A stretch of 64,000 nucleotides of DNA. Origin: Actinomycetota bacterium (GTDB taxonomy: Bacteria > Actinomycetota > Actinomycetes > Propionibacteriales > Propionibacteriaceae). Position 1 is the first letter of the stretch. Every line of letters starts with the position of its first letter. The stretch covers positions 124,001-188,000 of the forward strand of contig JAIUOR010000060.1 of the NCBI GenBank assembly GCA_020161795.1, given 5' to 3'. Below, one piece after another: positions 18,281-60,794 of the stretch. Made by a program: the position numbers and the translations under genes. Under the pieces are notes generated by a model. It was not told where the DNA came from, made no database searches, and worked only from the letters and a program-made list of their open reading frames with translations.

Positions 18281-18310
18281 GGTGGGGATCCCGCCTTCGC
18301 GGGGATGACC
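18281..18310. repeat. REP-like palindromic unit
   Basis: GGATCCCGCCTTCGCGGGGA followed by TGACC: a short imperfect hairpin (arms ATCCCGC and GCGGGGAT around CTTC). The sequence resembles the GTCATCCCCGCGAAGGCGGGGATCC-type interspersed palindrome seen in many bacteria. One clear copy in this window, between DUF1003 and mrp; a degenerate piece lies at about 31696. Confidence 0.4.
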
Positions 18311-18367
18311 CGGGGTGATCGCGGGGATTGGCCGTGATCGGTGCTGACAAGGGCCTAGGGTTGAGGC

Positions 18368-19513
18368 ATGTCTGTTGTCAGCGCCGTGAATGAAGCCCTT
18401 GCCACCGTCATCGACCCGGAGATCCGGCGTCCGATCACCGAGTTGGGGATGGTCGAATCGGTGGCGGTGGATGCTGACGGCGTGGCCGCGGTCACCGTCC
18501 TGCTCACCATCGCGGGCTGTCCGCTGCAGTCGACCATCGAGAAGGACGTGACCCAGGCGGTGCTGTCCGTCGAGGGGATCGCGGACGTGAACCTCACCCT
18601 CGGGGTGATGAGCGACGAGCAGCGCGCCGAACTGAAGCAGCAGTTGCGCGGCGGCGTGGCGGATCGTGAGATCCCGTTCTCCCGGCCGGACAACCGCACC
18701 CAGGTGATCCTCGTCGCCTCCGGCAAGGGCGGGGTGGGAAAGTCGTCGGTGACGGTCAACCTGGCCATGGCGCTGGTAGCCAAGGGCAGGTCGGTGGGCG
18801 TGCTCGACGCGGACATCTACGGTCACTCGATCCCGCCGATGCTGGGGCTGGCCGATGCGGTCCCCACCTCGGTGGACGGGATGATCCTGCCGGTGCCGTC
18901 GCTGGGGATGTCGGTGATCTCGATCGGCATGCTGAAGGGCAGCCGCGATCAGGTGATCGCCTGGCGCGGGCCGATCCTCGACCGGGCGCTGCAGCAGTTC
19001 CTGGCCGATGTCTACTGGGGCGATCTCGACTTCCTGCTGGTCGACCTGCCGCCCGGCACCGGCGACGTCGCGCTCTCGCTGGGCCAGAAGCTGCCCAATG
19101 CCGAGGTGCTGGTGGTGACCACCCCCCAGCAGGCCGCGGCCGAGGTGGCCGAGCGGGCCGGCACGATGGCCTCCATGCTGGAGCAGAAGGTGCTCGGCGT
19201 GGTGGAGAACATGGCCTACCTCGATGTCACCTGCCCGGACTGCGACCGCACCCACCGGGTGGACGTCTTCGGCTCGGGCGGTGGCGAGGCGGTGGCGGAG
19301 ACCCTGACCGAGCGGCTCGGCTACGAGGTACCGCTGCTGGCCGAGATCCCGATGGATCCGGCGATGTCGGCGGCCGGCGACGAGGGCGTTCCGCTGGTGG
19401 CGACGGACCCGTCGCATCCCTCGGCCGCGGCACTGAACGGCGTCGCCGATCTACTCGCCTCCCGCCGGATCAGCCTGATCGGCAAGAGCCTCAATCTCTC
19501 ACCGGTCGGCTGA
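18368..19513 (+). CDS. Mrp/NBP35-family Fe-S cluster carrier ATPase (ApbC)
   Basis: A 381-residue cytoplasmic P-loop ATPase with an N-terminal MIP18/DUF59 domain (residues 1-90), deviant Walker A GKGGVGKSS (near residue 121), and a CPDC pair (VTCPDCDRTHRVD) near residue 293 that could bind a bridging Fe-S cluster in the dimer. Family members deliver Fe-S clusters to apoproteins. ATG at 18368 follows an 87-bp gap that carries a palindromic repeat. Confidence 0.92.
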   Translation: MSVVSAVNEALATVIDPEIRRPITELGMVESVAVDADGVAAVTVLLTIAGCPLQSTIEKDVTQAVLSVEGIADVNLTLGVMSDEQRAELKQQLRGGVADREIPFSRPDNRTQVILVASGKGGVGKSSVTVNLAMALVAKGRSVGVLDADIYGHSIPPMLGLADAVPTSVDGMILPVPSLGMSVISIGMLKGSRDQVIAWRGPILDRALQQFLADVYWGDLDFLLVDLPPGTGDVALSLGQKLPNAEVLVVTTPQQAAAEVAERAGTMASMLEQKVLGVVENMAYLDVTCPDCDRTHRVDVFGSGGGEAVAETLTERLGYEVPLLAEIPMDPAMSAAGDEGVPLVATDPSHPSAAALNGVADLLASRRISLIGKSLNLSPVG

Positions 19514-19642
19514 CCCAAACGGATCCCGGCTCGATAAGGGATCGCGTTCCCGCCATTCGAATTCTCGATAGTTGTGCCCTCGCGCGCCCTGGTTTCCTAC
19601 CGTGGACGGACCTTGCCCAAGCTCGGAGAACCAGGAGAGAAC

Positions 19643-20071
19643 GTGGCGAAAATCGTCAAGGTCAAGTCGGGGAGCCCCTATGAGGAGCGCGAGAGCTATT
19701 CCCGCGTGGTGTGCGTGGACGACTGGATCTTCGTGTCCAATACCGCGGGCCGCAATTATGTGACCAGGGAGATGTCGACGGATCCCGTCGAGCAGTTGCG
19801 ACAGGCGATGAAGAACGTGGAGGGGGCCCTGGCGGCGGTCGGCGCGACGCTGGCCGACGTCGTGCGCTCCCGGGTGACGATCCCGAACGTCGAGCACGCC
19901 TCCGACGTGATGGCGGCCGTGGGCGAGGTCTTCCGCGGGGTTGACCCCGCCAGCACCGTGCTGTGCAGCCCGCTGGGCGGGCCCGAGTACCTCGTCGAGG
20001 TGGAGATCACGGCCTACCGCGGTGCCTCCGCGTCGGCCCAGGAGCGGATCGTCGTCGACCTGTCGGCCTGA
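19643..20071 (+). CDS. RidA-family (YjgF) protein
   Basis: A 142-residue protein of the Rid superfamily, small trimeric enzymes that hydrolyse reactive enamine/imine intermediates. Motifs: WIFVSNTAGRNYVTREM, QLRQAMKNVEGALAAVGATL and VVRSRVTIPNVEHASDVMAA; the canonical RidA arginine seems to lie in VRSRVTI. GTG at 19643 has a good AGGAGA site four to five bases upstream; an in-frame open stretch continues to 19574 but lacks a better start. It is closed by its own terminator before the hydantoinase operon, though a functional link to that amide-degrading operon is plausible. Confidence 0.8.
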   Translation: MAKIVKVKSGSPYEERESYSRVVCVDDWIFVSNTAGRNYVTREMSTDPVEQLRQAMKNVEGALAAVGATLADVVRSRVTIPNVEHASDVMAAVGEVFRGVDPASTVLCSPLGGPEYLVEVEITAYRGASASAQERIVVDLSA

Positions 20072-20085
20072 TCCACGCAGTCGCC

Positions 20086-20120
20086 AGGGGGCGGTTCGGC
20101 AGCGGCCGGGCCGCCCCTTT
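20086..20120 (+). terminator. Rho-independent terminator after the RidA-like gene
   Basis: Stem GGGGCGG / CCGCCCC with a GC-rich loop, followed by TTT. It separates the RidA-like gene from the hydantoinase operon, 14 bp after the stop. Confidence 0.65.
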
Positions 20121-20155
20121 CGGCTGTCGTGAGGCGGCGTCCGGGAACTCCGTAG

Positions 20156-20195
20156 CGATAAGCATTGACTTATCGGTTAACGCTTGAATCATATT
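20156..20195 (+). promoter_or_regulatory. Candidate promoter and operator of the hydantoinase operon
   Basis: A perfect inverted repeat CGATAAG-CATTGA-CTTATCG (20156-20175) overlaps a -35-like TTGACT (20166-20171). A -10-like CATATT follows at 20190-20195 (18-bp spacer). The AT-rich stretch stands out from its surroundings and lies about 70 bp before hyuA. A LysR-type regulator encoded at the end of the same operon is the obvious candidate to bind it (inference). Confidence 0.5.
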
Positions 20196-20262
20196 GGACA
20201 GCTCATCGTGCGGCTTTCACCATTGACTCTCATCCGAGGGAATATCGAAGGAGGCCGGTGAC

Positions 20263-22332
20263 ATGGCGTTGCGACTGGGCGTGGACACGGGAGGTACCTT
20301 CACCGATGTCTGCCTCTACGACAACGAGTCGTCGGCCATCACCGTCGTGAAGGTCTCCACCACCCCCGCCAATCCTGGCCAGGGCGTCCTCGACGGGCTC
20401 GAGGCGTCGCTGCGGGCCGTCGGCGGCGAGCCGGTGGAGTCGATCGAGTACTTCGCGCACGGCACCACGGTGGCGACCAACGCGCTGCTGCAGGGACGCG
20501 GGGCGCGCGCCGGCCTGATCACGACCAAGGGCTTCCGCGACCTGCTGGAACTCGGCCGGCAGCGGCGTCCCCGGCTCTACGATCTCAAGGCGCAGAAGCC
20601 CGAACCGCTCGCCCCCCGCGATCTGCGTCGTGAGGTGGACGAGCGGGTGCGGTTCGACGGCTCGGTGGAGACACCGCTCGACCTCGATCAGGTGCGCGCC
20701 GAGATCCACCGGCTGCGCGACGCCGGGGTGGAAGCGGTCGCGGTGTGCTTCCTCTACAGCTACCTGCGGCCCGACCACGAGCAGCAGGTCCGGGAGCTCC
20801 TCGAAGCGGAGCTGCCGGACGCCTTCATCTCCATCTCCCACGAGGTGCTGCCCGAGTTCCGGGAGTACGAGCGGCTCTCCACCGTCATGGTCAACGCCTT
20901 CATCGGCCCGGTCATGCAGGGCTACCTCTCCCGGCTGCGAACCCGGCTCGGGGAGCGGGGGCTGCAGGTCATCCCGCACGTGACCCAGAGCAACGGCGGC
21001 ATCATGTCCTTCGAGATGGCCGAGCGGCTTCCGGTCCGTACCGTGCTGTCCGGCCCGAGCACCGGCGTCGTCGGGGCCGCCCGGCTCTCGTCCGCGGCGG
21101 GCTACGACGACATCATCACCTTCGACATGGGCGGCACCTCCAGCGATGTCGCCCTGGTCAAGGACGGTCGCCCCACCGCCTCCAACGGCATGGTGCTGGA
21201 CGGTCGTCCGGTGCAGGCGGCGATGCTCGACATCAACACGGTGGGCGCCGGTGGCGGCTCGATCGCGTGGACGGACGAGGGCGGGCACCTCAAGGTCGGT
21301 CCGCGCAGCGCCGGCGCCGACCCCGGGCCGGCCTGCTACGGCCTCGGCAACGACGAGCCCACCGTGACCGACGCGAACGTGGTGCTCGGGATTCTCAACC
21401 AGGAGGCACTGCTCGGCGGGTCGATGCCGATCGACGCCTCGCTGTCCTACGCGGCGGTCGAGCGGCTCGGGCGAAGGCTGGGGCTGGATCCGCTGGAGAC
21501 GGCGCAGGGCATCATCAGCGTGGTGACGGCCAACATGGCGCGCGCGATCCGGGTGATCTCGGTGCAACGCGGCTACGACCCGAGCGACTACGCGCTGGTG
21601 GCCTTCGGTGGCGCGGGGCCGCTGCACGGGGCGCGGCTCGCCGAGGAGCTCGGAATGCGTCGCGTCATCATCCCGCAGCGGCCGGGCGCGCTCTCCGCGC
21701 TGGGGATGCTGATGACCGATCTGCGCTCCGACTTCACCCGCACCCGGATCACCCGGCTCACCGCCGACCTGGATCCGGCGCTGGAGGCCGACCTCACGGC
21801 GCTGACCGAGGACGCGATCGCCTGGTGCGAGCGCGAGCGCATCGCGGATTCCGCCCGGGAGATCCGCTGGGCGGCGGACCTGCGCTATGTCGGGCAGAAC
21901 TACGAACTCACCCTCGAACTGCCCCGGGCAGCCCTGGATGCCAGCTGGGTCGCTCGGGCCTGCGAGGCCTTCCATCTGGCGCACCAGGCACGGTACGGGT
22001 ACGACTCCCGGGATTCGGCGATCGAGCTCGTCACCGTCCGCGTCGAGGCCGTCGGTCAGGTGCCTCGCGCCGAGTTCCCGGTGGTCGAACCCACCGGAGC
22101 CCCGGTCGGCTCGGCCCGCATCGGCTCGCGGTCGCTCTACCTGCCCGAACTCGGTGACCGGGCGGACTGCCCGCTCTACGACCGGGTGCTGCTGCAACCG
22201 GGCCATGTCATCGAGGGCCCGGCGGTGATCGAGCAGTACGACACCACCTCCCTGATCCTCCCGGGCCAGCGCGCCGTCGTGGACGAGCGCCTGATCATCG
22301 TCACCGAGCAGACCGAGGAGCACCAGCGATGA
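20263..22332 (+). CDS. hyuA: Hydantoinase/oxoprolinase subunit A (HyuA-like)
   Basis: A 689-residue cytoplasmic ATP-dependent amidase subunit. The phosphate-binding loop VDTGGTFTDVCLYD is at residues 7-20, the second ATP motif FDMGGTSSDVALVKDG is central, and GAGGGSIAW and RSAGADPGPACYG match the family. HyuA and HyuB together hydrolyse hydantoins, 5-oxoproline or related cyclic amides/ketones (acetone carboxylase is a distant relative). AAGGAGG lies 8 bp before the ATG. The stop overlaps hyuB by four bases (ATGA). The transporter genes downstream suggest an imported peptide-like or cyclic amide substrate. Confidence 0.9.
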   Translation: MALRLGVDTGGTFTDVCLYDNESSAITVVKVSTTPANPGQGVLDGLEASLRAVGGEPVESIEYFAHGTTVATNALLQGRGARAGLITTKGFRDLLELGRQRRPRLYDLKAQKPEPLAPRDLRREVDERVRFDGSVETPLDLDQVRAEIHRLRDAGVEAVAVCFLYSYLRPDHEQQVRELLEAELPDAFISISHEVLPEFREYERLSTVMVNAFIGPVMQGYLSRLRTRLGERGLQVIPHVTQSNGGIMSFEMAERLPVRTVLSGPSTGVVGAARLSSAAGYDDIITFDMGGTSSDVALVKDGRPTASNGMVLDGRPVQAAMLDINTVGAGGGSIAWTDEGGHLKVGPRSAGADPGPACYGLGNDEPTVTDANVVLGILNQEALLGGSMPIDASLSYAAVERLGRRLGLDPLETAQGIISVVTANMARAIRVISVQRGYDPSDYALVAFGGAGPLHGARLAEELGMRRVIIPQRPGALSALGMLMTDLRSDFTRTRITRLTADLDPALEADLTALTEDAIAWCERERIADSAREIRWAADLRYVGQNYELTLELPRAALDASWVARACEAFHLAHQARYGYDSRDSAIELVTVRVEAVGQVPRAEFPVVEPTGAPVGSARIGSRSLYLPELGDRADCPLYDRVLLQPGHVIEGPAVIEQYDTTSLILPGQRAVVDERLIIVTEQTEEHQR

Positions 22333-50064: not shown

Positions 50065-50940
50065 TCAGTGGAATGGCAGGCGTGGATCCGGCGTCTGATC
50101 GGCCCAGGTCGCTCGTATCCAGTGGTGAGCCGGATCATCGGTCGACAGCCATTGCCTGTCGCTCGCCGGACCGGCCATGACGTTCAGTCCATAGAGGTCG
50201 TAGCCGGGGGCAGCCATGGTAGGTCCGTGGTAGCCATGGGGAACGAGGACAGTGTCCCCATGATGGATCTCTGTGAACAGATTCAGCGGACGGTCGGGCG
50301 TGCCGTATCCGCGTTGGAAGGCGAGCCCTTGCTGTTCCTGCTCCGCGCGGAACATGAAGAAGTAGGTCTCTTCCAGAGCTCGCTCCTCCGCTGTGTGCGC
50401 ATCGTGCTTGTGCGGCGGGAAGGAAGACCAATTGCCGCCCGGGGTGATGGCTTCACAGACCAACAGGCGACCGGTCGACGCCCTGGTGTTGAGGGCGTAG
50501 TTGGTGATCTGACGCGAACAACTGCCTGCGCCGCGGACGGAGGACTCGGCAACCGCCGCTGGGTAGTAGGAGGGTGGTGGGCACTGCACCGTGCTTGCCT
50601 CGGCGGCGCAGATTGCCAGCAATACGGGCTGTTCGGCCTGGATGACGGTGCTCGTTCTCGGCGGAAGGTACTGAAAATCGGTGACACCGGAGAACACGTC
50701 GAGACGACCCTCCAGCCCTTGGTCGGCCGCCTCGCCAGCGTGGCTCCAGGAGACGGTCGCCCGCCCCCGTAGAGGCAGGAGGATTGCCTCGAAGTCGCCC
50801 AGATCGAATCCGTGCGTCGCGCCCGGCTCCAGTTGGACAACGCGTAGACCCACGTATGACCAGCCCGCGGACTCCGGAGTGATGTCCACCCATACGTGTT
50901 CGTCACGTTGCGGATGAATCACCATCGGTTGTGTGCTCAC
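50065..50940 (-). CDS. iolB: 5-deoxy-glucuronate isomerase
   Basis: A 291-residue cupin-fold isomerase of inositol catabolism, converting 5-deoxy-D-glucuronate to 2-deoxy-5-keto-D-gluconate. Motifs: PPHKHDAHTAEERALEETYF with the metal-binding His/Glu set, GYGTPDRPLNLFTEIHHGDT and VLVPHGYHGPTMAAPGYDLY. Length matches IolB. First gene of the island, transcribed away from iolD; the shared upstream region holds two copies of the GTTGC-N7-GCAAC palindrome. Confidence 0.93.
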   Translation of the reverse strand: MSTQPMVIHPQRDEHVWVDITPESAGWSYVGLRVVQLEPGATHGFDLGDFEAILLPLRGRATVSWSHAGEAADQGLEGRLDVFSGVTDFQYLPPRTSTVIQAEQPVLLAICAAEASTVQCPPPSYYPAAVAESSVRGAGSCSRQITNYALNTRASTGRLLVCEAITPGGNWSSFPPHKHDAHTAEERALEETYFFMFRAEQEQQGLAFQRGYGTPDRPLNLFTEIHHGDTVLVPHGYHGPTMAAPGYDLYGLNVMAGPASDRQWLSTDDPAHHWIRATWADQTPDPRLPFH

Positions 50941-50991
50941 ATCGGCAAGCTACACAGTTCCGGTGGGAAAGCGCCCGGCGAGGATCTCGAT

Positions 50992-51008
50992 GTTGCGTTC
51001 CATGCAAC
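50992..51008. promoter_or_regulatory. Operator-like palindrome 1 (GTTGC-N7-GCAAC)
   Basis: TGTTGC-GTTCCAT-GCAACT, 52 bp upstream of the iolB start. Same spacing and arms as the copy at 51171-51187 and nearly the same as that at 56061-56077. The 447-bp iolB-iolD intergenic region also contains a GTTGC half-site at 51232 next to tandem ATGCACGA units; no gene was found in it. Confidence 0.65.
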
Positions 51009-51170
51009 TATCTGAGGTAAGGCGCTTGCCGCCGCCATGATTCATGGGCCGTGGGCGTGCAAATCCGGTTTGGGCGCAGCCTCCAACGCGGCTCGTGCCA
51101 CAACTTCCTCCTTCGTGAACAAGGTGGGTGCGACTGGATTCGACGATCGCACATCGTGGATTAGCGCATT

Positions 51171-51187
51171 GTTGCGGCCAGTGCAAC
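51171..51187. promoter_or_regulatory. Operator-like palindrome 2 (GTTGC-N7-GCAAC)
   Basis: TTGTTGC-GGCCAGT-GCAACTA, 201 bp upstream of the iolD start and 231 bp upstream of the iolB start. Extended consensus with the other copies: TGTTGC-N7-GCAACWA. Probable IclR-family binding site. Confidence 0.65.
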
Positions 51188-51387
51188 TACCGGCCGCAGG
51201 TGTCTTGATATTGCTCAGTACGTCCGCGAAAGTTGCATGCACGACATGCACGATCGTTCGAGGGCGAGCGGAAGCTTGGGACCCGTCAATAGCGAAAACA
51301 ATCAGAAGAACTGTGTTCGGCCGCGAGGTCAACCAGTTGAATATCAAGCGCCCCACGCTTGAAGCAGCGAACCTGGAAGGACCGAAG

Positions 51388-53277
51388 GTGAATACGGTAC
51401 GCCTTACCGCAGGACAGGCCTTAATTCGTTACCTCATGAACCAGTATGTGACCCGCGATGGAGTCACGGAAAGGTTCTTCCCTGGAATCTGGGGGATCTT
51501 TGGTCACGGCAATATCGGCGGAGTGGCACAGGCGATCCAGCAGTATGAGGACGACTTCCCCTACTACATGTGTCGTAATGAGCAGGGAATGGTTCATGCC
51601 GCCATTGGGTACAGCAAGATGAAGAATCGCATGCAGGCATTCGCCTGTCTCACTTCGATCGGGCCGGGGGCGACCAACATGGTTACCGGCGCCGCGACCG
51701 CCACTGTTGACCGGATTCCGGTGCTGCTCATCAGCGGCGACAGCTTCGCGGAACGAGTGCAGGGGCCAGTGCTGCAGCAAGTGGAATCGGAGAAATCACT
51801 TGAGACCACGGCCAACGACACCTTTCGACCAGTCGTGCGTTATTGGGATCGGGTCGTCCGCCCTGAGCAGCTGATCACGGCTCTCCCGGAGGTCATGCGT
51901 ACCCTCACTTCGCCGGCCGATACCGGTGCGGCCTTCTTAGCGATGCATCAGGACGTCGGGACATTCGCCTATGACTACCCCGAGCAGTTCTTCGAGCCGC
52001 GGGTCTGGCGGATCGAGCGCAATCGAGCCGATAGCGATGCCATCAGGACGGCCGCCGATCTGATCCGGCAGGCGAAGCGGCCACTGATCGTCTGTGGCGG
52101 TGGGGTGCGTTACTCCGGCGCCGAGGCTGAGCTCACCGCGTTCGCCGAGACCCACGGCATCCCGGTCGCGGAGACGCACGCGGGCAAGGGCTCGATCAAC
52201 GATGACCATTCGCTGAGCCTGGGGGGCGCCGGAGTCGCAGGCTCGCGCGGGGCCAATGTCTGCGCCGAGAAGGCGGATCTGGTGATTGGGATCGGCTCTC
52301 GCTTCACAGACTTCGCGACAGCCTCCAAGACCGCGTTCCAGAATCCCGACGTCAAGTTCGTCCATATCAACGTGTTCGAGATGGACGCCTACAAGCACGG
52401 CGCTATCGCGCTCACAGGTGATGCAAAGGTGACGATCCCTGAACTGAGTGCCGAAGTCGGCAGCTATCGCACATCCGATGGATACCGTGATGAGATCTCC
52501 GAGCATCGCTCCTGGTGGCGAAAAGAGGTGGATCGTCTCTTTGACACCAACATCGGCACTCTGCCGACCCAGGCACAGCTTATTGGGGCGGTCGTCCGTA
52601 CTGCGGATCCACGCGATGTCGTCGTGACGTCGGCCGGATCACTTCCCGGAGACCTTCTGAAACTGTGGCGCTCCACGGATTCGCTGTCCTATCAGGTGGA
52701 GTACGGCTACTCCGTCATGGGCTATGAGATCGCCGGCGGCATCGGTGCGAAGATGGCCGATCCGTCCCGCGAAGTCTATGTGATGAGCGGTGATGCCTCC
52801 TTCTTGATGATGAACAGCGAGCTGGCTACAGCGGTGGCTGAGGGCGTCAAGATCATTCTGATCCTGATAGATAATCACGGTTACTCCAGCGTCGGAAATG
52901 TGTCGGAGCAAGTGGGCTGTGAAGGATATGGCTGTCATTACGTCAAGCGTGGTGGGGACGGCAAGTACAGCGGACAGACCATGCACCATGATTTGGCGAA
53001 GATCTGCGAAGGGCTGGGAGCCCGGACATTCAGCGTGGGCACGCTGAACGAGTTCGCCAGCGCACTGGACGCAGCGCGTCGGGAGTCCACCAGCTGCGCC
53101 ATCGTGGTCGAAACTGACTGGGATGTCCGGGTTGGAGGATACGCAACTTGCTGGTGGGACATGGCGACCGCTGAGGTCTCGGAGTCTCCCGCTGTCCAGG
53201 AGGCGCGCGTGACGTATGAGCGCGAGAAGAAGGCCCAACGCTGGCTCGGGGTAGAGCCGACGATCACGCTCCCGTGA
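51388..53277 (+). CDS. iolD: 3D-(3,5/4)-trihydroxycyclohexane-1,2-dione hydrolase
   Basis: A 629-residue ThDP enzyme that opens the inositol-derived ring to give 5-deoxy-glucuronate. The catalytic Glu lies in YMCRNEQGMVHAAIGY (E65), the ThDP/Mg motif in SGDASFLMMNSELAT with DNHGYSSVG, and the mid domain has KADLVIGIGSRFTDFAT. Start GTG 51388 (TVRLTAGQALIRYL, the usual N-terminus) has GGAAGGA six bases upstream; a further 117 open codons upstream are not family-like. First gene of iolD-iolA-transaldolase. Confidence 0.94.
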   Translation: MNTVRLTAGQALIRYLMNQYVTRDGVTERFFPGIWGIFGHGNIGGVAQAIQQYEDDFPYYMCRNEQGMVHAAIGYSKMKNRMQAFACLTSIGPGATNMVTGAATATVDRIPVLLISGDSFAERVQGPVLQQVESEKSLETTANDTFRPVVRYWDRVVRPEQLITALPEVMRTLTSPADTGAAFLAMHQDVGTFAYDYPEQFFEPRVWRIERNRADSDAIRTAADLIRQAKRPLIVCGGGVRYSGAEAELTAFAETHGIPVAETHAGKGSINDDHSLSLGGAGVAGSRGANVCAEKADLVIGIGSRFTDFATASKTAFQNPDVKFVHINVFEMDAYKHGAIALTGDAKVTIPELSAEVGSYRTSDGYRDEISEHRSWWRKEVDRLFDTNIGTLPTQAQLIGAVVRTADPRDVVVTSAGSLPGDLLKLWRSTDSLSYQVEYGYSVMGYEIAGGIGAKMADPSREVYVMSGDASFLMMNSELATAVAEGVKIILILIDNHGYSSVGNVSEQVGCEGYGCHYVKRGGDGKYSGQTMHHDLAKICEGLGARTFSVGTLNEFASALDAARRESTSCAIVVETDWDVRVGGYATCWWDMATAEVSESPAVQEARVTYEREKKAQRWLGVEPTITLP

Positions 53278-53339
53278 TCTCGGTGCATCCGCACGCGGAC
53301 GCGCGACCTCGTCATCCGACTACTCGATCAGGAAGAATC

Positions 53340-54842
53340 ATGACCACGCTCAACCATTGGATCGGTGGACAGCACGCTGCGCCGTCAGGCTCGTCCACCA
53401 CGCCGATACACGACCCGGCTACGGGAGAGATCCTGAAGTATGCGCCGGCCGCAACGGCCGAGGAAGTGGAAACGGCCATCGATTGGGCGCAGACCGGTGC
53501 TTCCACCTGGGCCACCGCGCCAGCAAGCACCCGCTCCAGTGTGCTCTTCTCTTTCCGCGAGAAGCTGATTGGTGCTCGCTCACGGTTGGCGGAAGCCATC
53601 ACCGGCGAGCAGGGCAAGGTGCTCGCCGACGCCATGGGCGAGGTGGATCGCGGTCTCGAGGTCGTTGAACTCGCTTGTGGCGCCGCTCGCCAGGTCAGCG
53701 AGGTCTCGATGCAGGCCGCACGCGGGCTCGATGTGTTCACTCATCGCCAACCGATCGGTGTGGTTCTGGGGATCACACCCTTCAACTTCCCGGTGATGAT
53801 TCCGCTATGGATGAGTGCGATGGCCATCGCCACGGGGAACAGTTTTATCCTCAAGCCGGCCAAACGCGATCCGTCGGCCAGCCTGATCCTGGCGGAACTG
53901 TGGGCCGAGGCGGGGTTGCCGGCCGGGGTGTTCCAGGTCCTTCACGGCGGAAGCAGCCTCGCCCAGGCGCTCATCACCCATCCCGCGGTGAGCGCAGTGT
54001 CGTTCGTCGGATCCACAGGTGTTGCGCAGGCGGTCCATGCCTCCGCAAGTGCCAGCGGCAAACGCGTCCAGGCTTTCGGCAGTGCGAAGAACTACGGTGT
54101 CGTTCTGCCGGATGCGGACCTGGGTTTCGCTGCCAAGTCGATCGCAGCGGCCGCGTTCGGAGCGGCCGGCCAGCGGTGCATGGCGCTGCCGGTTGCGCTT
54201 CTGCACGAGGACATCGCCGATGAGGTCATTGCCGAACTGGTCAACCAGGCCACGAAGATCAAGGTCGGGCCGGGCCGGGCTGAAGGCGTGGATCTTGGTC
54301 CTCTGATCAGCCGTGCGAGCCTGGAGCGGGTTCGCCACCTCATCGGTACTGCGGTCTCGGAAGGAGCCGAGACTCTGGTCGATGGCCGCACGCTTGTCAT
54401 TGACGGCCATGAGGATGGCTATTTCGTAGGACCCACCATCCTGGATCGAGTCCATCCCGCCATGGAGATCCACCGGGAAGAGGTGTTTGCCCCGGTACTG
54501 GAGATCATCAGATTCTCGGATCTGGATGAAGCCATCAGCATCGTGAACGCGAATCCTTACGGAAACGGGACTGCGATCTTCACGAGTTCCGGGTTCGCGG
54601 CCCGTCGGTACCAGATGGAGATCGAGGTGGGCATGGTAGGCATCAATGTCCCCATCCCGGTGCCTATCGCAGCCCATTCTTTCGGTGGGTGGAAGGGGTC
54701 CGTGATAGGGGACGTGAACATGTACGGCGCGGATGGTCTGCGGTTCTACACCCGCCTCAAGACCGTCACTCAGCGCTGGCCGGACTCCGCGCAGCGGGCT
54801 GGGGACGCTTCCTACCACTTTGCTGCTCGCTCCAAGAGCTGA
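53340..54842 (+). CDS. iolA: Methylmalonate/malonate semialdehyde dehydrogenase (CoA-acylating)
   Basis: A 500-residue aldehyde dehydrogenase. The catalytic cysteine is C280 (GAAGQRCMALP). The position of the usual general-base Glu is Asn (SAKNY, N251), the mark of CoA-acylating MMSDH/IolA enzymes, which turn malonate semialdehyde into acetyl-CoA and CO2, the last step of inositol degradation. FNFPVMIPLWMSAMAIATGN is family-typical. ATG at 53340, 62 bp after iolD. Confidence 0.92.
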   Translation: MTTLNHWIGGQHAAPSGSSTTPIHDPATGEILKYAPAATAEEVETAIDWAQTGASTWATAPASTRSSVLFSFREKLIGARSRLAEAITGEQGKVLADAMGEVDRGLEVVELACGAARQVSEVSMQAARGLDVFTHRQPIGVVLGITPFNFPVMIPLWMSAMAIATGNSFILKPAKRDPSASLILAELWAEAGLPAGVFQVLHGGSSLAQALITHPAVSAVSFVGSTGVAQAVHASASASGKRVQAFGSAKNYGVVLPDADLGFAAKSIAAAAFGAAGQRCMALPVALLHEDIADEVIAELVNQATKIKVGPGRAEGVDLGPLISRASLERVRHLIGTAVSEGAETLVDGRTLVIDGHEDGYFVGPTILDRVHPAMEIHREEVFAPVLEIIRFSDLDEAISIVNANPYGNGTAIFTSSGFAARRYQMEIEVGMVGINVPIPVPIAAHSFGGWKGSVIGDVNMYGADGLRFYTRLKTVTQRWPDSAQRAGDASYHFAARSKS

Positions 54843-54866
54843 ACCGAATCGAACGAGAGGAGTGAG

Positions 54867-55940
54867 ATGAACGCCACTGAGACCCCGCTGGGGGTCATGA
54901 CTGCGCGATTCCCACAGACCGCGCTGTGGAATGACTCTGCCGACCCGGAGCAGCTTTCCCAGGCAGTCTCCTGGGGCGCAGTCGGCGCGACCTGTAACCC
55001 GGTGATCGCGCTGACGGCGATGAAGGCGGACCCAACGTACTGGCGGTGCCGAATCAGCGAGATTGCGCTCCAGCATCCGGCCTGGTCGGAGTCGGAGATC
55101 GGCTGGCAGGCAGTTGCCGAACTTTCTGCGACATCGGCGGAACTCCTGCGCCCCGCGTTCCAGGCGAGCAACGGTCGGAACGGTCGTCTGTCGATTCAGG
55201 TTGACCCCCGGCACTACCGGGATGCCGAAGCGATGACACGGCAAGCGGTTGAGTTCAGCCAGCTCGCGCCCAACATCATCGTGAAGATACCCGCTATCGA
55301 AACGGGCCTGGCAGCGATCGAAGAGGCAACCAGACTAGGCGTCAGTGTCAACGCGACGGTCTCGTTCACTGTCTCGCAGGCCGTCGCGGTCGCGGAGGCG
55401 ATCGAGCGGGGACTGGTGCGACGGGAGACAGCAGGGGACCCGGTCGACCAGATGGGACCCGTCTGCACGATCATGGGAGGCCGTTTGGAGGATTGGATAA
55501 AGCTCCGCGCCCTGGAAGCCCGAAAACTGTTGCCCCCGGGTTACCTGGAGTGGTCTGGCACTGCTGTGGTGAAGCGTGCCTACGAGATCTACCAGGAGCG
55601 TAGTTGGCGTACCAGATTGCTGTCGGCGGCATTCAGGAACGAACTGCTCCTCACCGAAGTGGTCGGCGGAGACTTGGTGGTGTCGCCGCCGTTCGAATGG
55701 CTCCAACTTGTGAACGGCAACTACGTCGAGTTGCCGGCTCGTATGGACGTCCCGGTGGACCGGGCGATCATCGAGCGGCTGTATGACGTGCCGGACTTCG
55801 CCAAGGCCTTCGACCCTGATGGCCTGCAACCTGAGGAGTTTCTCGACTTCGGCCTGACTCGCCGGACCTTGCGACAGTTCCTTGGCGCGACGGCCGATAT
55901 CGAGTCCTTCGTCCGGGATGTCATCCTTCCTGCGCCCTAG
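54867..55940 (+). CDS. Transaldolase-family protein in the inositol cluster
   Basis: A 357-residue TIM-barrel protein of the transaldolase family. GAVGATCNPVIALTAM (residues 38-52), LSIQVDPRHYRDA, the Schiff-base lysine in IIVKIPA (K140), VNATVSFTVSQAVAVAEAIE and SPPFEWLQL are all aligned with the family. It is larger than fructose-6-phosphate aldolases (about 220) and near bacterial transaldolases (about 320-370). It lies 24 bp after iolA, where most iol clusters encode the IolJ or DUF2090 aldolase; those are absent here. It may cleave or transfer a carbon unit from the 2-deoxy-5-keto-gluconate intermediate (inference). Confidence 0.85.
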   Translation: MNATETPLGVMTARFPQTALWNDSADPEQLSQAVSWGAVGATCNPVIALTAMKADPTYWRCRISEIALQHPAWSESEIGWQAVAELSATSAELLRPAFQASNGRNGRLSIQVDPRHYRDAEAMTRQAVEFSQLAPNIIVKIPAIETGLAAIEEATRLGVSVNATVSFTVSQAVAVAEAIERGLVRRETAGDPVDQMGPVCTIMGGRLEDWIKLRALEARKLLPPGYLEWSGTAVVKRAYEIYQERSWRTRLLSAAFRNELLLTEVVGGDLVVSPPFEWLQLVNGNYVELPARMDVPVDRAIIERLYDVPDFAKAFDPDGLQPEEFLDFGLTRRTLRQFLGATADIESFVRDVILPAP

Positions 55941-56054
55941 CAGTGAACGTCATCGCCGCTGGCGAAACAGCATGTGTCATCGCATCAACGGTGCACGAGG
56001 TTGCCCATCGAGGGCACTTTGTTGCGCACAGCGCGAGACAGGAAGAGCGGATCT

Positions 56055-56083
56055 ACGAATGTTGTCTTGCACGCAACATTCGT
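56055..56083. promoter_or_regulatory. Operator-like palindrome 3 upstream of the iclR gene
   Basis: ACGAATGTTG-TCTTGCACG-CAACATTCGT: a perfect 10-bp inverted repeat. Its core GTTGT-N7-GCAAC (56061-56077) repeats the motif of the iolB-iolD intergenic region with one change. It lies about 88 bp before the regulator start, consistent with autoregulation. A GTTGC half-site lies at 56021. The 230-bp gap before the regulator holds no other feature. Confidence 0.7.
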
Positions 56084-56170
56084 GACGATAGTGGTTGCTG
56101 GCGACAAGGGACTCAGGCAAGGCTTGGGAAAGAGGCTGGGACTCGGACGACGCGCCAAGGAGGACGCATC

Positions 56171-57046
56171 ATGGAGGAAGAGGGCGATCAGGCTCAGGTT
56201 GTTCACGACGTGCCTGTGAGCGTCGAGCGCAGTGCTTTGACCAGAGGGCTGAAGATCGTCGATCTGCTGATGGAGGTCGAGTTCGATCCGGTCCGGCAGC
56301 GCGCCGGCCTCTCGGTGCAGCAGGCTGCGCTGGAGTTGGGTGTCCACAAGTCCACTGCCTCTCGTTTGCTGCAGGAACTGGTCGAATGTGGCTACGCGGT
56401 GCCCAATCCGAATGCCAAGCGTGGGTTTCGGCTCGGTCCCGCACTTCGGTACCGGAGGGTGCTCTCTGCCGGGCAACAGGCATTTCGGGAAGCGGCTGCC
56501 CCCTTCCTGCAGAGGCTGGTCGGCCAGACCGAGGAGTGCGCACACGCCGCGGTGCCCATGGGTGAGTCCGCTCTGGTGGTCGATGCGTTCGAAACCTGGA
56601 AAGCCCTCCGTGTGGTGGCAACCAAAGGACGGTCCGTTCCGCTCCATTGCACGTCCGCGGGGAAGGCTCTCCTGGCTTTCGGGATGGCCGAGGTGCCACT
56701 GGATCTGCCCGCGCGAACGAACCGGACCCTGGTCAACCGCGAAGTGCTGATCGCCCACCTCAACGAGATCCGAGAACGAGGTTGGGCGCTTGATGACGAG
56801 GAGAATCACGGGGGAGTGAGGTGCATCTCTGCGCCGGTGTTCGCGGGAGCCGACAACCCGGTGGGTTGCATCGGTATCGACGGCCCGCGTCTGAGGCTGC
56901 GAGATGAGGTTTTGGAGGAACTGGCAGAACAGGTGGTGGCGGCTGCTGCCGGCCTGTCCGCCGAGCTTGCTGCCCATGAAGGCTGGCGAGAACGTCCGGG
57001 AGGCGGACATCGCGCGGCGGTGCGTCCGGATCGGCCGGGTACCTAG
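56171..57046 (+). CDS. IclR-family transcriptional regulator of the inositol cluster
   Basis: A 291-residue IclR regulator: winged HTH (ALTRGLKIVDLLMEVEFDPV; LSVQQAALELGVHKSTASRL) after a 20-residue leader, then the GAF-like effector domain (SVPLHCTSAGKALLAF, the family block; GVRCISAPVFAGADNPVGCI). AAGGAGG lies seven bases before the ATG at 56171. The only regulator in the island, and the likely binder of the three palindromes; effector probably an inositol-pathway intermediate (inference). Confidence 0.9.
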   Translation: MEEEGDQAQVVHDVPVSVERSALTRGLKIVDLLMEVEFDPVRQRAGLSVQQAALELGVHKSTASRLLQELVECGYAVPNPNAKRGFRLGPALRYRRVLSAGQQAFREAAAPFLQRLVGQTEECAHAAVPMGESALVVDAFETWKALRVVATKGRSVPLHCTSAGKALLAFGMAEVPLDLPARTNRTLVNREVLIAHLNEIRERGWALDDEENHGGVRCISAPVFAGADNPVGCIGIDGPRLRLRDEVLEELAEQVVAAAAGLSAELAAHEGWRERPGGGHRAAVRPDRPGT

Positions 57047-57233
57047 GCAGGCTCGCCGAGCCAGAAGCAAGTTTGCGCCACTGGCCCTTTCAAATCGGGT
57101 CGAGTGGTGAGTGATTGGTGCAAGACCGGTCATTCCATGCTGGGTGAAGCACAGAGATTTCTTGCACTTGAAAATAGATACATAGCTGAATCCGGATAAC
57201 TGTTCATTTGTTGTAGGTCGAAAGGAAGAGATT

Positions 57234-58262
57234 ATGTCCCTAACGCTCCGATCAGGCGTGTTCAAAACATGCGGCTTGCTTGCTGCGGTGCTTGTGGCGT
57301 CGGTCACGGCGGGCTGCGCCCCCGCCGCGCCACCGGCCTCGAGTGGCTCGCCCGGCGCAGAGTCCATCAAGATCGGCGTCGCATTGCCCGAAGGCAGCCA
57401 GATGTACTGGGCGTCGTACAAGAATGGTGCGGAAGCCAAGGCAAAGGAACTGGGCGTCGAGATCACCGTGACCGACGCGAAGAACGACGCCAACACCATG
57501 AACGAGCAGATCAGCACGATGATTGTTTCGGGGGTCGCCGGAATCAGCATCGCATCGGTCGATCCCGACGCCAACCTTCAATCGGCGCAGGCCGCCACGG
57601 AGGCCGGGATCCCGCTGATCACCGGCAACCGGCTGCTGAGCGGCACCTACGGTGGAGTCGGTGGCGCGAACCCGCAGGTGCACGTCGGGTTCAACGACGT
57701 GATCATGGGCGAGCAGCAGGGGCAACTCCTGATTCAGGCCTGTGAGGGCAAGGACCCGTGTCTGGTCGTGCTGCAGGAGGCAACTCTTGGCTCCTCTCCG
57801 CAGATTCAGCGGACCGAAGGGTTGACCAAGGCCATCGAAGGCCAGTCCAACATCCAGATCATCGACAAGCAGACGAACAACTTCGATCCGGCGAAGGCTG
57901 TGGAAGTCACCCAGACCATCCTCCAGGCTCACGACAAGATTGATGTCATGGTGACTCAGGACGACTACACCGCTGTCGCCGCTCAGAACGTCCTGAGTGA
58001 GCAGAAGCGGGATGGCATCCTGGTGATCGGCCTGGGCGGGTCGGTGAACGGTATCGAGGCGGTTCAGAAAGGCCTGCTGTACGGGACCGTGTTCCACAGT
58101 GCGTCCGAGGATGCAGCCAAGGCCGTCGAGACTCTCGTCCAGATCATTCGCGGGCAGGGCGATCAGGTCACCGTTGCCACCGGTGGAGAGCGTCCGACTG
58201 TCGTCGTTGAGACCTCGATCGTGACCAAGGAGAACGCGAGCCAGTTCGAGGGAACCTGGTGA
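57234..58262 (+). CDS. Sugar-type ABC substrate-binding lipoprotein (Peripla_BP_4)
   Basis: A 342-residue lipoprotein with lipobox TAGC (Cys28), then a ribose/galactose/inositol-type periplasmic-binding fold (IKIGVALPEGSQMYWASYKN; GVAGISIASVDPDANLQSAQ; DVMVTQDDYTAVAAQNVL). Partners are the ATPase and permease right behind it. By context the ligand is probably inositol or a related polyol. A 187-bp AT-richer leader after iclR holds an AAAGGAAG ribosome site and a widely spaced GTGCAAG/CTTGCAC inverted pair (57118-57124, 57161-57167). Confidence 0.9.
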   Translation: MSLTLRSGVFKTCGLLAAVLVASVTAGCAPAAPPASSGSPGAESIKIGVALPEGSQMYWASYKNGAEAKAKELGVEITVTDAKNDANTMNEQISTMIVSGVAGISIASVDPDANLQSAQAATEAGIPLITGNRLLSGTYGGVGGANPQVHVGFNDVIMGEQQGQLLIQACEGKDPCLVVLQEATLGSSPQIQRTEGLTKAIEGQSNIQIIDKQTNNFDPAKAVEVTQTILQAHDKIDVMVTQDDYTAVAAQNVLSEQKRDGILVIGLGGSVNGIEAVQKGLLYGTVFHSASEDAAKAVETLVQIIRGQGDQVTVATGGERPTVVVETSIVTKENASQFEGTW

Positions 58263-58266
58263 TCGA

Positions 58267-59805
58267 ATGAGTTCCCCAGCCTCCCCCGCGGCCCCTGTCT
58301 TGGAGGTCCGTGGGTTGCACAAGAGATTTGGCGGCGTCCGTGCGCTTCGGGGCGTCGGGCTGTCTCTGGCCGCGGGGGAGGTTGTGGGGCTGCTCGGCGA
58401 GAACGGCGCGGGAAAGTCCACTCTCATCAACGTGCTCAGCGGTGTCTATCGTCCCGACTCCGGTGAGCTCTGCATTGACGGCGAGCCACATGACTTCATC
58501 CATGAGCCAGCCGAAGCATCCAAGCTCGGCATCGCGACCGTTCACCAGGAAAGCGGGCTGCTGGAGAACCTCACGGTTGCCGAGAACCTCGTGTTGGGTG
58601 TCGAACCGGGAACTCCGGGCCTACCGTTCTGGCTTCGCAAGAGCGATACCCGGCGAGTCGCGCAGCAGATCATGGAGAACGTCGGCATAGATCTGCCACT
58701 CGCCGCTCTCGCGGGCACGCTGAGTGTCGCCGAGCGGCAGCGGGTCGAGATCGTCCGGGCAGTCCACGACGCGGCGAAACTGATCATCTTCGATGAGCCA
58801 ACCGCTGCGTTGGCGGCTCGTGAAGTTGAGGAACTCTTCACCGCGATCGGCCAGGTCAAGGCCAAGGGTGTACCGGTGCTCTACGTTTCGCATCGTCTTG
58901 ACGAGATCCCCATCATCTGTGATCGCTCGGTCATCCTCCGCGACGGTGCGGTCGTCGGAGAATTGGACAAGGAGCATTCCGTTCCGGACGAGATCATCCC
59001 TCTGTTGGTCGGTCGCCGACTGGAGGAGCAGTTCCCAGAATTGGCTCCGCCACGCGACGACGAGGCGCTGCTGGTGGAGTCACTGAGCAGTACGGGCCTG
59101 GCACCGGTCAGTTTCAGTGTGCGCAAAGGCGAGGTACTGGGGCTCACCGGAGCTATCGGTGCCGGACAGCGGAAACTCGCGCGTGCTCTCGCCGGCATAG
59201 AGCCGGCAGCGGGGAGGGTTGCCATGGGCGGCAGGCACATCCCTACCGGGCGACCGGACCTCGCGCTGGCCGCGGGGGTTGCCTACGTTTCGGGTGACCG
59301 GAAGACCGACGGAGTTTTTCCAGAATTGTCGGTTTGGCGAAACATCACCGCGCAGGTCGCCGCGTCCATGGCCAGGATCGGGTTCATTTCGAAACGGGCC
59401 GAGAAGCGCGCGGGCTCGCTACTCATGACCGAGTTCGCCGTGAAGGCGGCAAGCCCCGACGCGCTCATCACGTCGCTCAGCGGAGGGAATCAGCAGAAGG
59501 CGCTGATGGCGAGGTCTGCCGGAATGAATCCCAACGTCCTCATTCTTGACGATCCGACCGCCGGGGTGGACGTGGGCTCGCGGCGTCAGATCTACGACCG
59601 GATCGCCGAGCTGGCGAAGGCTGGCATGTCCGTGATCCTGTCCACCACGGACAATGCCGAACTTCGTGCCATGAGCCACCGGGTACTCGTCTTCGCCGAT
59701 GGTCGAGTCCTTGCCGAACTGGCCGCTGAAGATGCCACTGAGGAGACCGTGCTGAGGATTCGGGAGGACCGGCGCGGAATTGACGTTCAAAGGAGTTCTG
59801 AATAA
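58267..59805 (+). CDS. Dual ATPase of a ribose/inositol-type ABC importer (RbsA-like)
   Basis: A 512-residue protein with two nucleotide-binding domains. First: Walker A GENGAGKST, signature TLSVAERQR, Walker B LIIFDEPTAAL. Second: degenerate Walker A (GAIGAGQRKLARAL), signature SLSGGNQQKALMAR, Walker B VLILDDPTAGVD. This asymmetry is standard for RbsA/MglA. It begins 4 bp after the binding-protein gene and overlaps the permease gene by one base. Confidence 0.93.
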   Translation: MSSPASPAAPVLEVRGLHKRFGGVRALRGVGLSLAAGEVVGLLGENGAGKSTLINVLSGVYRPDSGELCIDGEPHDFIHEPAEASKLGIATVHQESGLLENLTVAENLVLGVEPGTPGLPFWLRKSDTRRVAQQIMENVGIDLPLAALAGTLSVAERQRVEIVRAVHDAAKLIIFDEPTAALAAREVEELFTAIGQVKAKGVPVLYVSHRLDEIPIICDRSVILRDGAVVGELDKEHSVPDEIIPLLVGRRLEEQFPELAPPRDDEALLVESLSSTGLAPVSFSVRKGEVLGLTGAIGAGQRKLARALAGIEPAAGRVAMGGRHIPTGRPDLALAAGVAYVSGDRKTDGVFPELSVWRNITAQVAASMARIGFISKRAEKRAGSLLMTEFAVKAASPDALITSLSGGNQQKALMARSAGMNPNVLILDDPTAGVDVGSRRQIYDRIAELAKAGMSVILSTTDNAELRAMSHRVLVFADGRVLAELAAEDATEETVLRIREDRRGIDVQRSSE

Positions 59806-60794
59806 TGACTGTGAGTGTGGATCCGTCGCTTGCCGAGGGGAAAGCGAAGAGTGGCGGCGCGAGTTCGGCGTTCTTGAGGCTGATGCAGAAGAACGGCCTC
59901 ATGCTGTTCTTCGCCGTCCTGCTGCTCATCTTCGCAGCCGTCCGCCCGGAATTCCTGTCGTTGCCGAATCTTCGTAACATCGCTATCAGCGCCGCTGTCC
60001 TCGGCATCCTTGCAGTGGGTCAGACGATAGTCATCATCACTGGTGGATTCGATCTTTCGGTCGCGCGGAACGCCGTCGCCGTATCGATGGTCCTGGCACT
60101 TCTGGTAGGTCTCGGTCCGGTGGTGGCGTTGCTTGGCGCGGTCGCAACGGGGATGCTGATCGGACTCACCAATGGTGTGTTGATATCGCAGACGAAGGTG
60201 AACCCGTTTGTCGTTACGCTCGGTATGTACACGATCCTTGGTTCCGTCGTTCTTCTTTTGAACAATGGCAACGCCATCAGCCAGTTGCCCGACTGGATTC
60301 TGAACATGGCCAAGGCAGAGTTCCTCGGCATATCTTCGGTGGTCTGGTGGTTCGTCATTGTCGCGATAGCCGGCCACCTGCTGTTGGCCCACACCAAGTT
60401 CGGCCGCCATCTCTACGCGGTGGGAGGGAACCCCAGTGCTGCGAGGGTGTCCGGCGTGAGGGTCAAGCGGGTCACTGCGCTGGCGTACCTGGTGTGCGGC
60501 CTCGCCGCGGCCATCGGGGGCATCATCCTGACTGCCAGACTTCAGATCGCGTCTCCGGTAGCGCTGCCCGGCGCCGAGCTGGATGCCATTGCTGCAGTGA
60601 TCATTGGTGGGACGCGACTGAGCGGTGGGTTCGGATCGATCCCACGGACAATTCTCGGGGTGCTGATCCTCACCTCGCTTTCCAGTGGACTCGTCCTGAT
60701 GGGTGTGTCGTCCTATTGGCAGGGTGCTTTCAAGGGAGCGATCATCATCCTCGCCGTCATCTTCGACGTGGCATTTGCTTCGCGGCGTCGCTAG
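59805..60794 (+). CDS. Ribose/inositol-type ABC permease (RbsC-like)
   Basis: A 329-residue permease with about nine hydrophobic helices. GQTIVIITGGFDLSVARNAV, NGVLISQTKVNPFVVTLGMY and GRHLYAVGGNPSAARVSGVR are RbsC signatures. Last gene of the island; 52 bp further right begins the second copy of the 60-bp repeat. Confidence 0.92.
   Translation: MTVSVDPSLAEGKAKSGGASSAFLRLMQKNGLMLFFAVLLLIFAAVRPEFLSLPNLRNIAISAAVLGILAVGQTIVIITGGFDLSVARNAVAVSMVLALLVGLGPVVALLGAVATGMLIGLTNGVLISQTKVNPFVVTLGMYTILGSVVLLLNNGNAISQLPDWILNMAKAEFLGISSVVWWFVIVAIAGHLLLAHTKFGRHLYAVGGNPSAARVSGVRVKRVTALAYLVCGLAAAIGGIILTARLQIASPVALPGAELDAIAAVIIGGTRLSGGFGSIPRTILGVLILTSLSSGLVLMGVSSYWQGAFKGAIIILAVIFDVAFASRRR

What the first reader, a model, noticed from the sequence alone, without database searches (positions are those of the whole stretch)
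50065..60794. Inositol module with a transaldolase-family protein in place of the usual aldolase
iolB, iolD, iolA, an IclR regulator and a complete ABC importer are present, but no IolJ or DUF2090 aldolase. A 357-residue transaldolase-family protein with the Schiff-base lysine conserved sits directly after iolA. It could be an unrelated (non-orthologous) replacement for the 2-deoxy-5-keto-gluconate-6-phosphate aldolase, or a transferase giving a variant pathway. IolG, IolE and IolC are also missing from the window.
Basis: inference. Interest (0 to 1): 0.82.

Follow-up and report, generated by a model that had tools for sequence, protein, structure and literature searches.

The report
Transaldolase replacing two inositol-pathway enzymes
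A transaldolase-like enzyme sits inside bacterial inositol-degradation gene clusters, often exactly where the usual sugar kinase and aldolase genes are missing, which points to an undescribed shortcut for breaking down inositol that still has to be shown in the test tube.

Summary
iolB, iolD, iolA, a 357-aa transaldolase-fold protein ("iTAL"), an IclR regulator and an ABC importer lie at 50065-60794. The genome shows no DUF2090, no IolC over cut-off and no Cgl0159-type aldolase.

iTAL is a distinct clade, apart from pentose-phosphate transaldolases. It keeps the Schiff-base Lys, but Glu96 of TalB is Gln in 81 of 81 members. 39 of 80 related loci carry iolA, B or D; nine carry A, B, D and E-/G-like genes without iolC.

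Control: IolC is over cut-off in 66 of 69 IolD+ genomes of the same phylum without iTAL, but in 14 of 35 IolD+ genomes with it. Cgl0159 aldolase occurs only in IolC+ genomes.

Best reading: iTAL cleaves non-phosphorylated 2-deoxy-5-keto-gluconate, passes dihydroxyacetone to glyceraldehyde-3-P and hands malonate semialdehyde to IolA, as in sulfo-transaldolase sulfoglycolysis.

Against: 7 of 27 iTAL-IolD clusters keep IolC; all seven isolates with IolD and iTAL keep IolC; IolJ was not searched; activity is untested.

The parts
50065..50940 (-). iolB, 5-deoxy-glucuronate isomerase (makes DKG)
   Evidence: TIGR04378 262.9 bits, over cut-off 205
51037..53277 (+). iolD, THcHDO acylhydrolase; the profile begins at residue 122, so the true start is near 51400
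   Evidence: TIGR04377 839.9 bits, over cut-off 715
53274..54842 (+). iolA, CoA-acylating (methyl)malonate-semialdehyde dehydrogenase; ATG at 53340 likely
   Evidence: TIGR01722 607 bits, over cut-off 448.5
54867..55940 (+). iTAL, transaldolase-fold protein; proposed DKG transaldolase
55284..55286 (+). codon of Schiff-base lysine K140
   Evidence: aligns with TalB K132; 81 of 81
55197..55199 (+). codon of Q111, in place of TalB Glu96
   Evidence: Gln in 81 of 81
55943..57046 (+). IclR-family regulator (ORF; HTH from about residue 98)
   Evidence: PF09339, PF01614
57234..58262 (+). ABC sugar substrate-binding protein
   Evidence: PF13407 155.8 bits
58267..59805 (+). ABC sugar ATPase, two domains
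   Evidence: PF00005, two stretches; AraG/RbsA-like
59805..60794 (+). ABC sugar permease
   Evidence: PF02653 137.4 bits

Best explanation
iTAL is a dedicated enzyme of inositol catabolism. After IolG, IolE, IolD and IolB have made 2-deoxy-5-keto-D-gluconate (DKG), iTAL forms a Schiff base with its keto carbon through K140 and cleaves the C3-C4 bond. It releases malonate semialdehyde (taken by the adjacent IolA) and transfers the dihydroxyacetone unit to glyceraldehyde-3-phosphate, giving fructose-6-phosphate. The route needs neither the kinase IolC nor a DKGP aldolase; phosphofructokinase and FBP aldolase would recover the triose, so the ATP cost is unchanged. It is the inositol counterpart of the sulfo-TAL pathway (sulfofructose + GAP -> sulfolactaldehyde + F6P). 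SHOWN: linkage, family, active-site residues, joint absence of IolC and Cgl0159/DUF2090 genes. INFERRED: substrate, acceptor, products.
For: Linkage: iolA, B or D in 39 of 80 loci; 28 with iolD, 21 of these without IolC; 9 with A, B, D and E-/G-like genes and no IolC; DUF2090 in 0 of 80. Genomes: 35 of 43 iTAL genomes have IolD; IolC over cut-off in 14 of these 35 against 66 of 69 IolD+ genomes of the window's phylum without iTAL. Fisher p = 5e-10; without the acidobacterial-type genomes 11 of 25 against 3 of 69 lack IolC, p = 1e-5; without genomes of 1.5 Mb or less 12 of 24, p = 2e-6. The three control exceptions are a truncated IolC at a contig end, a 3.4-kb contig, and an IolD paralogue in a histidinol-dehydrogenase cluster. 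IolC lies within 15 kb of IolD in 62 of 69 controls but within 15 kb of iTAL in 7 of 27 iTAL-IolD clusters. Cgl0159 aldolase in 11 of 14 IolC+ and 0 of 29 IolC- genomes. G001 and G003 have two clusters, IolD+iTAL and IolD+IolC+Cgl0159, on separate contigs. Chemistry: D23, N44, K140, T164, R206, R257 (TalB D17, N35, K132, T156, R181, R228) are invariant. Transaldolases take donors with a free C1-OH (recalled), hence DKG, not DKGP. The iolA-iTAL pair places the proposed product next to its consumer. IolC presence needs at least 4 changes on the iTAL tree (34 rows), so the association is not one lineage.
Against: No activity is known. IolC shares the cluster in 7 of 27 and in a Clavibacter plasmid. 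The 42 genomes were chosen by me from 80 loci for contig length, not drawn at random. G017 lacks IolC but has DUF2090 elsewhere. In G003 a weaker Cgl0159 relative lies near iTAL. Eight iTAL genomes lack IolD, so another substrate exists at least there. E96Q with F178M means neither the transaldolase Glu nor the FSA Tyr is present, so acid-base catalysis is unexplained. In ten genomes of 1.0-2.2 Mb iTAL is the only PF00923 protein, which would also fit a housekeeping role. IolJ was not searched. The window protein is itself an outlier (end branch 0.71).
Confidence: 0.52

Rival explanations
1. DKG aldolase: iTAL cleaves non-phosphorylated DKG to malonate semialdehyde and free dihydroxyacetone, which a DHA or glycerol kinase then phosphorylates. 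Same bypass of IolC and IolJ, no acceptor.
For: Gln in place of Glu96 is the fructose-6-phosphate-aldolase state: the own FSA-like protein also has Q. PDB holds E96Q and E96Q/F178Y TalB variants, and TalB F178Y is reported to behave as a DHA aldolase (PMC3962226, passages). DhaK/DhaL-like stretches beside the cluster in L077, GlpK-like in L080 and its near-twin L083.
Against: The FSA tyrosine is Met in iTAL; DHA or glycerol kinases in only 3 of 80 loci; phosphate-binding arginines R206 and R257 invariant.
Confidence: 0.22
2. Housekeeping or sugar-phosphate transaldolase (or F6P aldolase) that happens to sit among iol genes.
For: Only PF00923 protein in 10 of 43 genomes, and the window's genome has besides it only a short FSA-like one. 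Two complete acI chromosomes (L031, L051) carry iTAL more than 15 kb from IolD and IolC and have IolC plus Cgl0159. The second transaldolase F2 of Faecalicatena, with the same residue numbers, was guessed to be an F6P aldolase by its authors (PMC11659671).
Against: 33 of 43 iTAL genomes have a second PF00923 protein (some of these are short FSA/TalC-like); linkage to iol genes in Actinobacteria and Acidobacteria; strong link with absence of IolC; all NCBIfam transaldolase cut-offs failed.
Confidence: 0.12
3. One reading: iTAL is a 2-deoxy-5-keto-gluconate-6-phosphate aldolase working after a kinase.
For: G013, G024 and G037 have IolC beside iTAL but neither Cgl0159 nor DUF2090.
Against: IolC is absent from the genome in 18 of 27 cases where iTAL and IolD are clustered, so no DKGP would form there; class I transaldolases do not take C1-phosphorylated donors (recalled). 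IolJ-type aldolases, which could serve G013, G024 and G037, were not searched for.
Confidence: 0.06
4. iTAL acts on another substrate that is co-regulated with inositol (another cyclitol, a deoxy-sugar acid or a sulfo-sugar), and IolC is replaced by an unrecognised kinase.
For: iTAL occurs with iolA but without IolD in Geodermatophilaceae; a ribokinase-like PfkB in the L080 cluster and another PfkB-like stretch in L066.
Against: With two PfkB/IolC queries, L066 and L080 were the only IolC-less loci that matched at 60 bits or more; nine clusters have every other canonical step.
Confidence: 0.08

Closest known systems
[quoted passage not shown]
   Different: About 217 aa and decameric; catalytic Glu61 and a Trp-Ala-Arg sulfonate motif (PMC11659671); iTAL is 357 aa and has Gln at the Glu site
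Faecalicatena second transaldolase candidate F2 (IMG 2956859251)
   Different: Lies in a sulfoquinovose cluster; authors suggest F6P aldolase; no inositol link mentioned in the passages read
Actinobacterial pentose-phosphate transaldolase (TIGR00876, PRK03343; PDB 3r5e C. glutamicum)
   Different: Separate clade; Glu kept; iTAL scores 105 bits against a cut-off of 367 and 75 against 234
DKGP aldolases IolJ, IolC-DUF2090, Cgl0159-like (PF22649)
   Same: Proposed same carbon-carbon bond and same malonate semialdehyde product
   Different: Other families, acting on the phosphorylated substrate after IolC; PMC9007349 names IolJ-type enzymes as characterised and proposes DUF2090 (passages); that Cgl0159 is a DKGP aldolase is my inference from its place beside IolC

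Membership tests
Transaldolase/FSA superfamily (PF00923) | Profile match and transaldolase barrel | tested here: met
Transaldolase/FSA superfamily (PF00923) | Schiff-base Lys with Asp, Asn and Thr of the active site | tested here: met
   K140, D23, N44, T164, 81 of 81
Pentose-phosphate transaldolase | Equivalog/subfamily cut-off (TIGR00876, NF002881) | tested here: not met
   74.9 of 233.75 and 105.5 of 367 bits
Pentose-phosphate transaldolase | Catalytic Glu (TalB E96) | tested here: not met
   Gln in 81 of 81
Fructose-6-phosphate aldolase (TIGR00875) | Equivalog cut-off | tested here: not met
   42.3 of 245.95 bits
Fructose-6-phosphate aldolase (TIGR00875) | Gln plus Tyr pair at the TalB 96 and 178 sites | tested here: not met
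   Gln present, Tyr replaced by Met
Sulfofructose transaldolase | Catalytic Glu | tested here: not met
   Gln at that site; Glu61 in BmSF-TAL per PMC11659671
Sulfofructose transaldolase | Sulfonate-binding Trp-Ala-Arg motif | not tested
   motif known from PMC11659671 but not aligned to iTAL here
DKGP aldolase (DUF2090, Cgl0159) | Family membership | tested here: not met
   PF00923 is the only Pfam hit of the protein at E 0.001
Canonical inositol pathway | IolC kinase in the genome | tested here: not met
   No TIGR04382 hit over 300 bits in G000; assembly 95.6% complete
Canonical inositol pathway | IolB, IolD, IolA | tested here: met
   all over cut-off
Canonical inositol pathway | IolG and IolE | tested here: inconclusive
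   IolE none over cut-off; diverged Gfo/Idh (137 of 355 bits for TIGR04380) + TIM-barrel pair at C25 contig end; IolG not searched genome-wide
Canonical inositol pathway | IolJ-type class II aldolase | not tested
   not searched; housekeeping class II aldolases would match
DKG transaldolase (proposed) | DKG + GAP -> malonate semialdehyde + F6P | not testable with these tools
   needs enzyme assay

The most novel reading that the evidence does not exclude
Inositol catabolism has a phosphorylation-free transaldolase branch: one enzyme replaces kinase plus aldolase, and it arose beside the classical route and then displaced it several times, notably in freshwater acI actinobacteria and in soil Acidobacteria. 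Together with a Curtobacterium cluster that has iol genes next to a split transketolase, inositol pathways would then mirror the aldolase, transaldolase and transketolase variants of sulfoglycolysis.
Probability: 0.4. Interest if true: 0.83.

Novelty: new variant of a known kind. Interest (0 to 1): 0.7.

Why it matters
The aldolase step of inositol catabolism is a known annotation gap: in PMC9007349, of 26 inositol-using genomes 16 had IolC-DUF2090 and 2 had IolJ (passages). A large survey that counts at least three of iolB, C, D, E as an inositol cluster found 1,024 genomes with only three; in 810 the fourth lay elsewhere, and for the lack of the fourth it offers incomplete sequence, assembly errors or frameshifts (PMC9430895, passages). 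A real IolC-free route would change which organisms are called users and which gene is the marker. It would add a DKG transaldolase activity and show how pathway variants recur across chemically similar ketose acids. The proposal is cheap to test.

Tried and rejected
Pentose-phosphate transaldolase: rejected by tree, score cut-offs and E96Q. Assembly loss as the only cause of missing IolC: unlikely, because IolC normally lies within 15 kb of IolD (62 of 69) and several IolC-less clusters are interior to contigs of 35-229 kb (window, L035, L047, L053, L059, L060, L080); still open for any single genome. Hidden IolC among PfkB kinases: the best own hit (152 bits, C46) is at the level of secondary, paralogous hits in IolC+ genomes (142-206 bits). 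It also matches a ribokinase model (137.7 bits), and the 18.7 kb around it matched no iolA, B, D, E or G reference. DHA kinase as a marker of an aldolase: only 3 of 80 loci. A greedy longest-ORF caller mis-called high-GC loci; tblastn on DNA was used instead, where E- and G-like genes were called by similarity to reference isomerases and Gfo/Idh dehydrogenases, not by equivalog models. Literature: no paper holding inositol + transaldolase + (2-deoxy-5-keto, or malonate semialdehyde), nor myo-inositol + transaldolase + iolA. iolD + transaldolase gave two; their passages mention the two separately, as pentose-phosphate and inositol enzymes. 5-dehydro-2-deoxygluconokinase + transaldolase gave one (listing only). 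Of 41 papers with two of inositol catabol/transaldolase/iolC I saw 25 in the listing, and of 114 I saw 10; apart from the ones named in this report I did not open them. Searches concerned sulfo-TAL and aldolase engineering. In my notes and some script labels the aldolase is called Cgl0158; the Pfam name is Cgl0159-like, PF22649.
Full report
WHAT IS THERE. At 50065-60794 the window holds iolB (-), then iolD, iolA, a 357-aa transaldolase-family gene, an IclR regulator and a three-gene ABC sugar importer (+). All three iol enzymes pass NCBIfam equivalog or subfamily cut-offs. The transaldolase-family gene, called iTAL here, starts 24 nt after the iolA stop behind a GAGAGGAG motif. The genome (3.47 Mb, 67 contigs, 95.6% complete) has one other PF00923 protein, a short FSA-like one. 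No DUF2090, no Cgl0159-type aldolase and no IolC over cut-off were found. IolE has no hit over cut-off. A diverged Gfo/Idh dehydrogenase followed by a TIM-barrel, IolE-like gene lies at a contig end (C25:1-2169) and could supply the IolG and IolE steps. I did not search for class II IolJ, nor for IolG genome-wide.

NEIGHBOURS. A scan of genome contigs found 214 relatives and returned the best 80 at 53-61% identity. By record title they come mostly from Actinobacteria (including freshwater acI/Nanopelagicales) and Acidobacteria, with a few Chloroflexi and Deltaproteobacteria/Myxococcota MAGs. Of 80 loci, 39 carry iolA, B or D; 28 carry iolD, and 21 of those have no IolC. DUF2090 occurs in none. 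Nine (L020, L029, L035, L038, L045, L047, L060, L071, L080) carry A, B, D, an E-like and a G-like gene and iTAL but not IolC. Many loci are short contigs, so 39 is a floor. iolA lies directly before iTAL in the window and in L010, L011, L015, L022, L026, L067, L073 and L075.

GENOME-LEVEL TEST. I chose 42 of the 80 loci, those with longer contigs, and searched their whole genomes; from then on the window's own was added. IolD is over cut-off in 35 of 43 and IolC in 14 of 43. Cgl0159-type aldolase is in 11 of 43, all of them IolC+. DUF2090 is over cut-off in 1 of the 42 (G017) and below it in four more. As a control, 396 genomes of the window's own phylum were drawn evenly (the tool does not name it; I take it to be Actinomycetota). 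70 have IolD at E 1e-120, the window's own among them, 68 over cut-off. Among the other 69, none has iTAL (best hit 80 bits, at most 37% identity, against 793 bits for the window's own), and IolC is over cut-off in 66. The three exceptions are a truncated IolC beside Cgl0159 at a contig end (G055), a 3.4-kb contig (G157), and an IolD paralogue in a histidinol-dehydrogenase/SDR cluster (G282). IolC is absent in 21 of 35 against 3 of 69, Fisher p = 5e-10. Counting a partial IolC in G009 as present gives 20 of 35, p = 2.6e-9. Leaving out ten acidobacterial-type genomes gives 11 of 25, p = 1.4e-5; leaving out the genomes of 1.5 Mb or less gives 12 of 24, p = 1.9e-6. Locally, IolC is within 15 kb of IolD in 62 of 69 controls but within 15 kb of iTAL in 7 of 27 iTAL-IolD clusters, p = 1.9e-9. 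Species are not independent; on the iTAL tree IolC presence needs at least 4 changes (34 rows, G009 left out).

TWO-CLUSTER GENOMES AND MIXED CLUSTERS. G001 and G003 have one IolD beside iTAL with no IolC, and a second IolD on another contig beside IolC and Cgl0159. In G003 a weaker Cgl0159 relative (40%) also lies near iTAL. Seven of 27 clusters hold both iTAL and IolC (G008, G013, G014, G020, G024, G029, G037), as does a Clavibacter plasmid. Five of these seven (L032, L033, L046, L057, L063) branch early in the iTAL tree; L024 and L075 do not. I read this as coexistence first and displacement later; the order is inferred. Results against: all seven isolates (by title) with IolD and iTAL keep IolC, eight iTAL genomes have no IolD, and two complete acI chromosomes (L031, L051) carry iTAL away from IolD and IolC together with IolC and Cgl0159.

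MECHANISM. Read from its keto end, DKG is CH2OH-CO-CHOH-CHOH-CH2-COO-. A transaldolase-type cleavage gives a dihydroxyacetone enamine on the lysine plus malonate semialdehyde, the substrate of IolA (established pathway chemistry, recalled). With GAP as acceptor the product is F6P. This is the logic of sulfo-TAL, in which sulfofructose, a ketose with an anionic end, is cleaved without phosphorylation; a parallel sulfo-TK route uses transketolase (PMC11659671, passages and section 22). The two invariant arginines match the phosphoryl-binding pair of TalB (2x Arg and 1x Ser, with R181 confirmed, in PMC3962226, passages; that the second is R228 is recalled). Gln for Glu96 is the FSA state, yet the FSA Tyr is Met here, so release of free DHA remains a serious rival and the acid-base group is unknown.

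KNOWN OR NEW. PMC9007349 (passages) reports IolJ-type enzymes as the only previously characterised DKGP aldolases and proposes DUF2090 as another. PMC9430895 (passages) counts clusters with three of four core genes. The searches named found no held paper that links a transaldolase to inositol catabolism (limits in Tried and rejected). One earlier sighting of the family is likely: Faecalicatena transaldolase candidate F2, produced on sulfoquinovose and not on glucose, has D23, Q111, K140, N162 and T201 at the same numbers as iTAL. Its authors suggest an F6P aldolase. I could not fetch its sequence, so this identity is an inference. The result is a new variant of a known kind, with strong genomic and no biochemical evidence.

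Noticed in passing
L090 (NZ_CP126261.1) 9129-21954: Curtobacterium plasmid: iolG, IolE-like, iolB, iolD, an SSADH-like dehydrogenase, two IclR genes, split transketolase, 1-PFK-like PfkB kinase and PEP carboxykinase, with no annotated iolC in the stretch shown. Possibly a transketolase variant of inositol catabolism, parallel to sulfo-TK.
   Followed up: partly
L022, L023, L036, L070 (Geodermatophilaceae); L041, L058 (Nocardioidaceae): iTAL in genomes without IolD; in Geodermatophilaceae with iolA nearby; other neighbours (judged by eye, not by profile) look like Tm-1-like, BKACE-like and xanthine-dehydrogenase-like genes in one or another locus. Suggests a second substrate.
   Followed up: partly
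L216 (NZ_CP093338.1) 11839-13059: Shinella plasmid protein 33% identical to iTAL inside a cluster annotated as acetoin-dehydrogenase-like, with class II aldolase and triose-phosphate isomerase.
   Followed up: no
L031, L051 and relatives: acI genomes where iTAL is the only PF00923 protein and lies away from iolD and iolC, next to genes that look by eye like UppP and a TauE-type permease.
   Followed up: partly
L025, L026, L037, L039: Records titled Bifidobacterium breve MAGs whose iTAL falls among freshwater actinobacteria in the tree; the labels are probably wrong.
   Followed up: no
L024 5180-7075: IolC fused to a Cgl0159-type aldolase in one 631-aa ORF, an analogue of the IolC-DUF2090 fusion.
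   Followed up: no
L224 (G282:C13) 6083-11044: IolD-family protein in a cluster with histidinol-dehydrogenase-, SDR- and HpcH/HpaI-family genes: the IolD family may have a role outside inositol clusters.
   Followed up: no
G000:C25:1-2169 (L219): IolG-like and IolE-like gene pair at a contig end of the window's own genome; the operon may continue past the break.
   Followed up: partly
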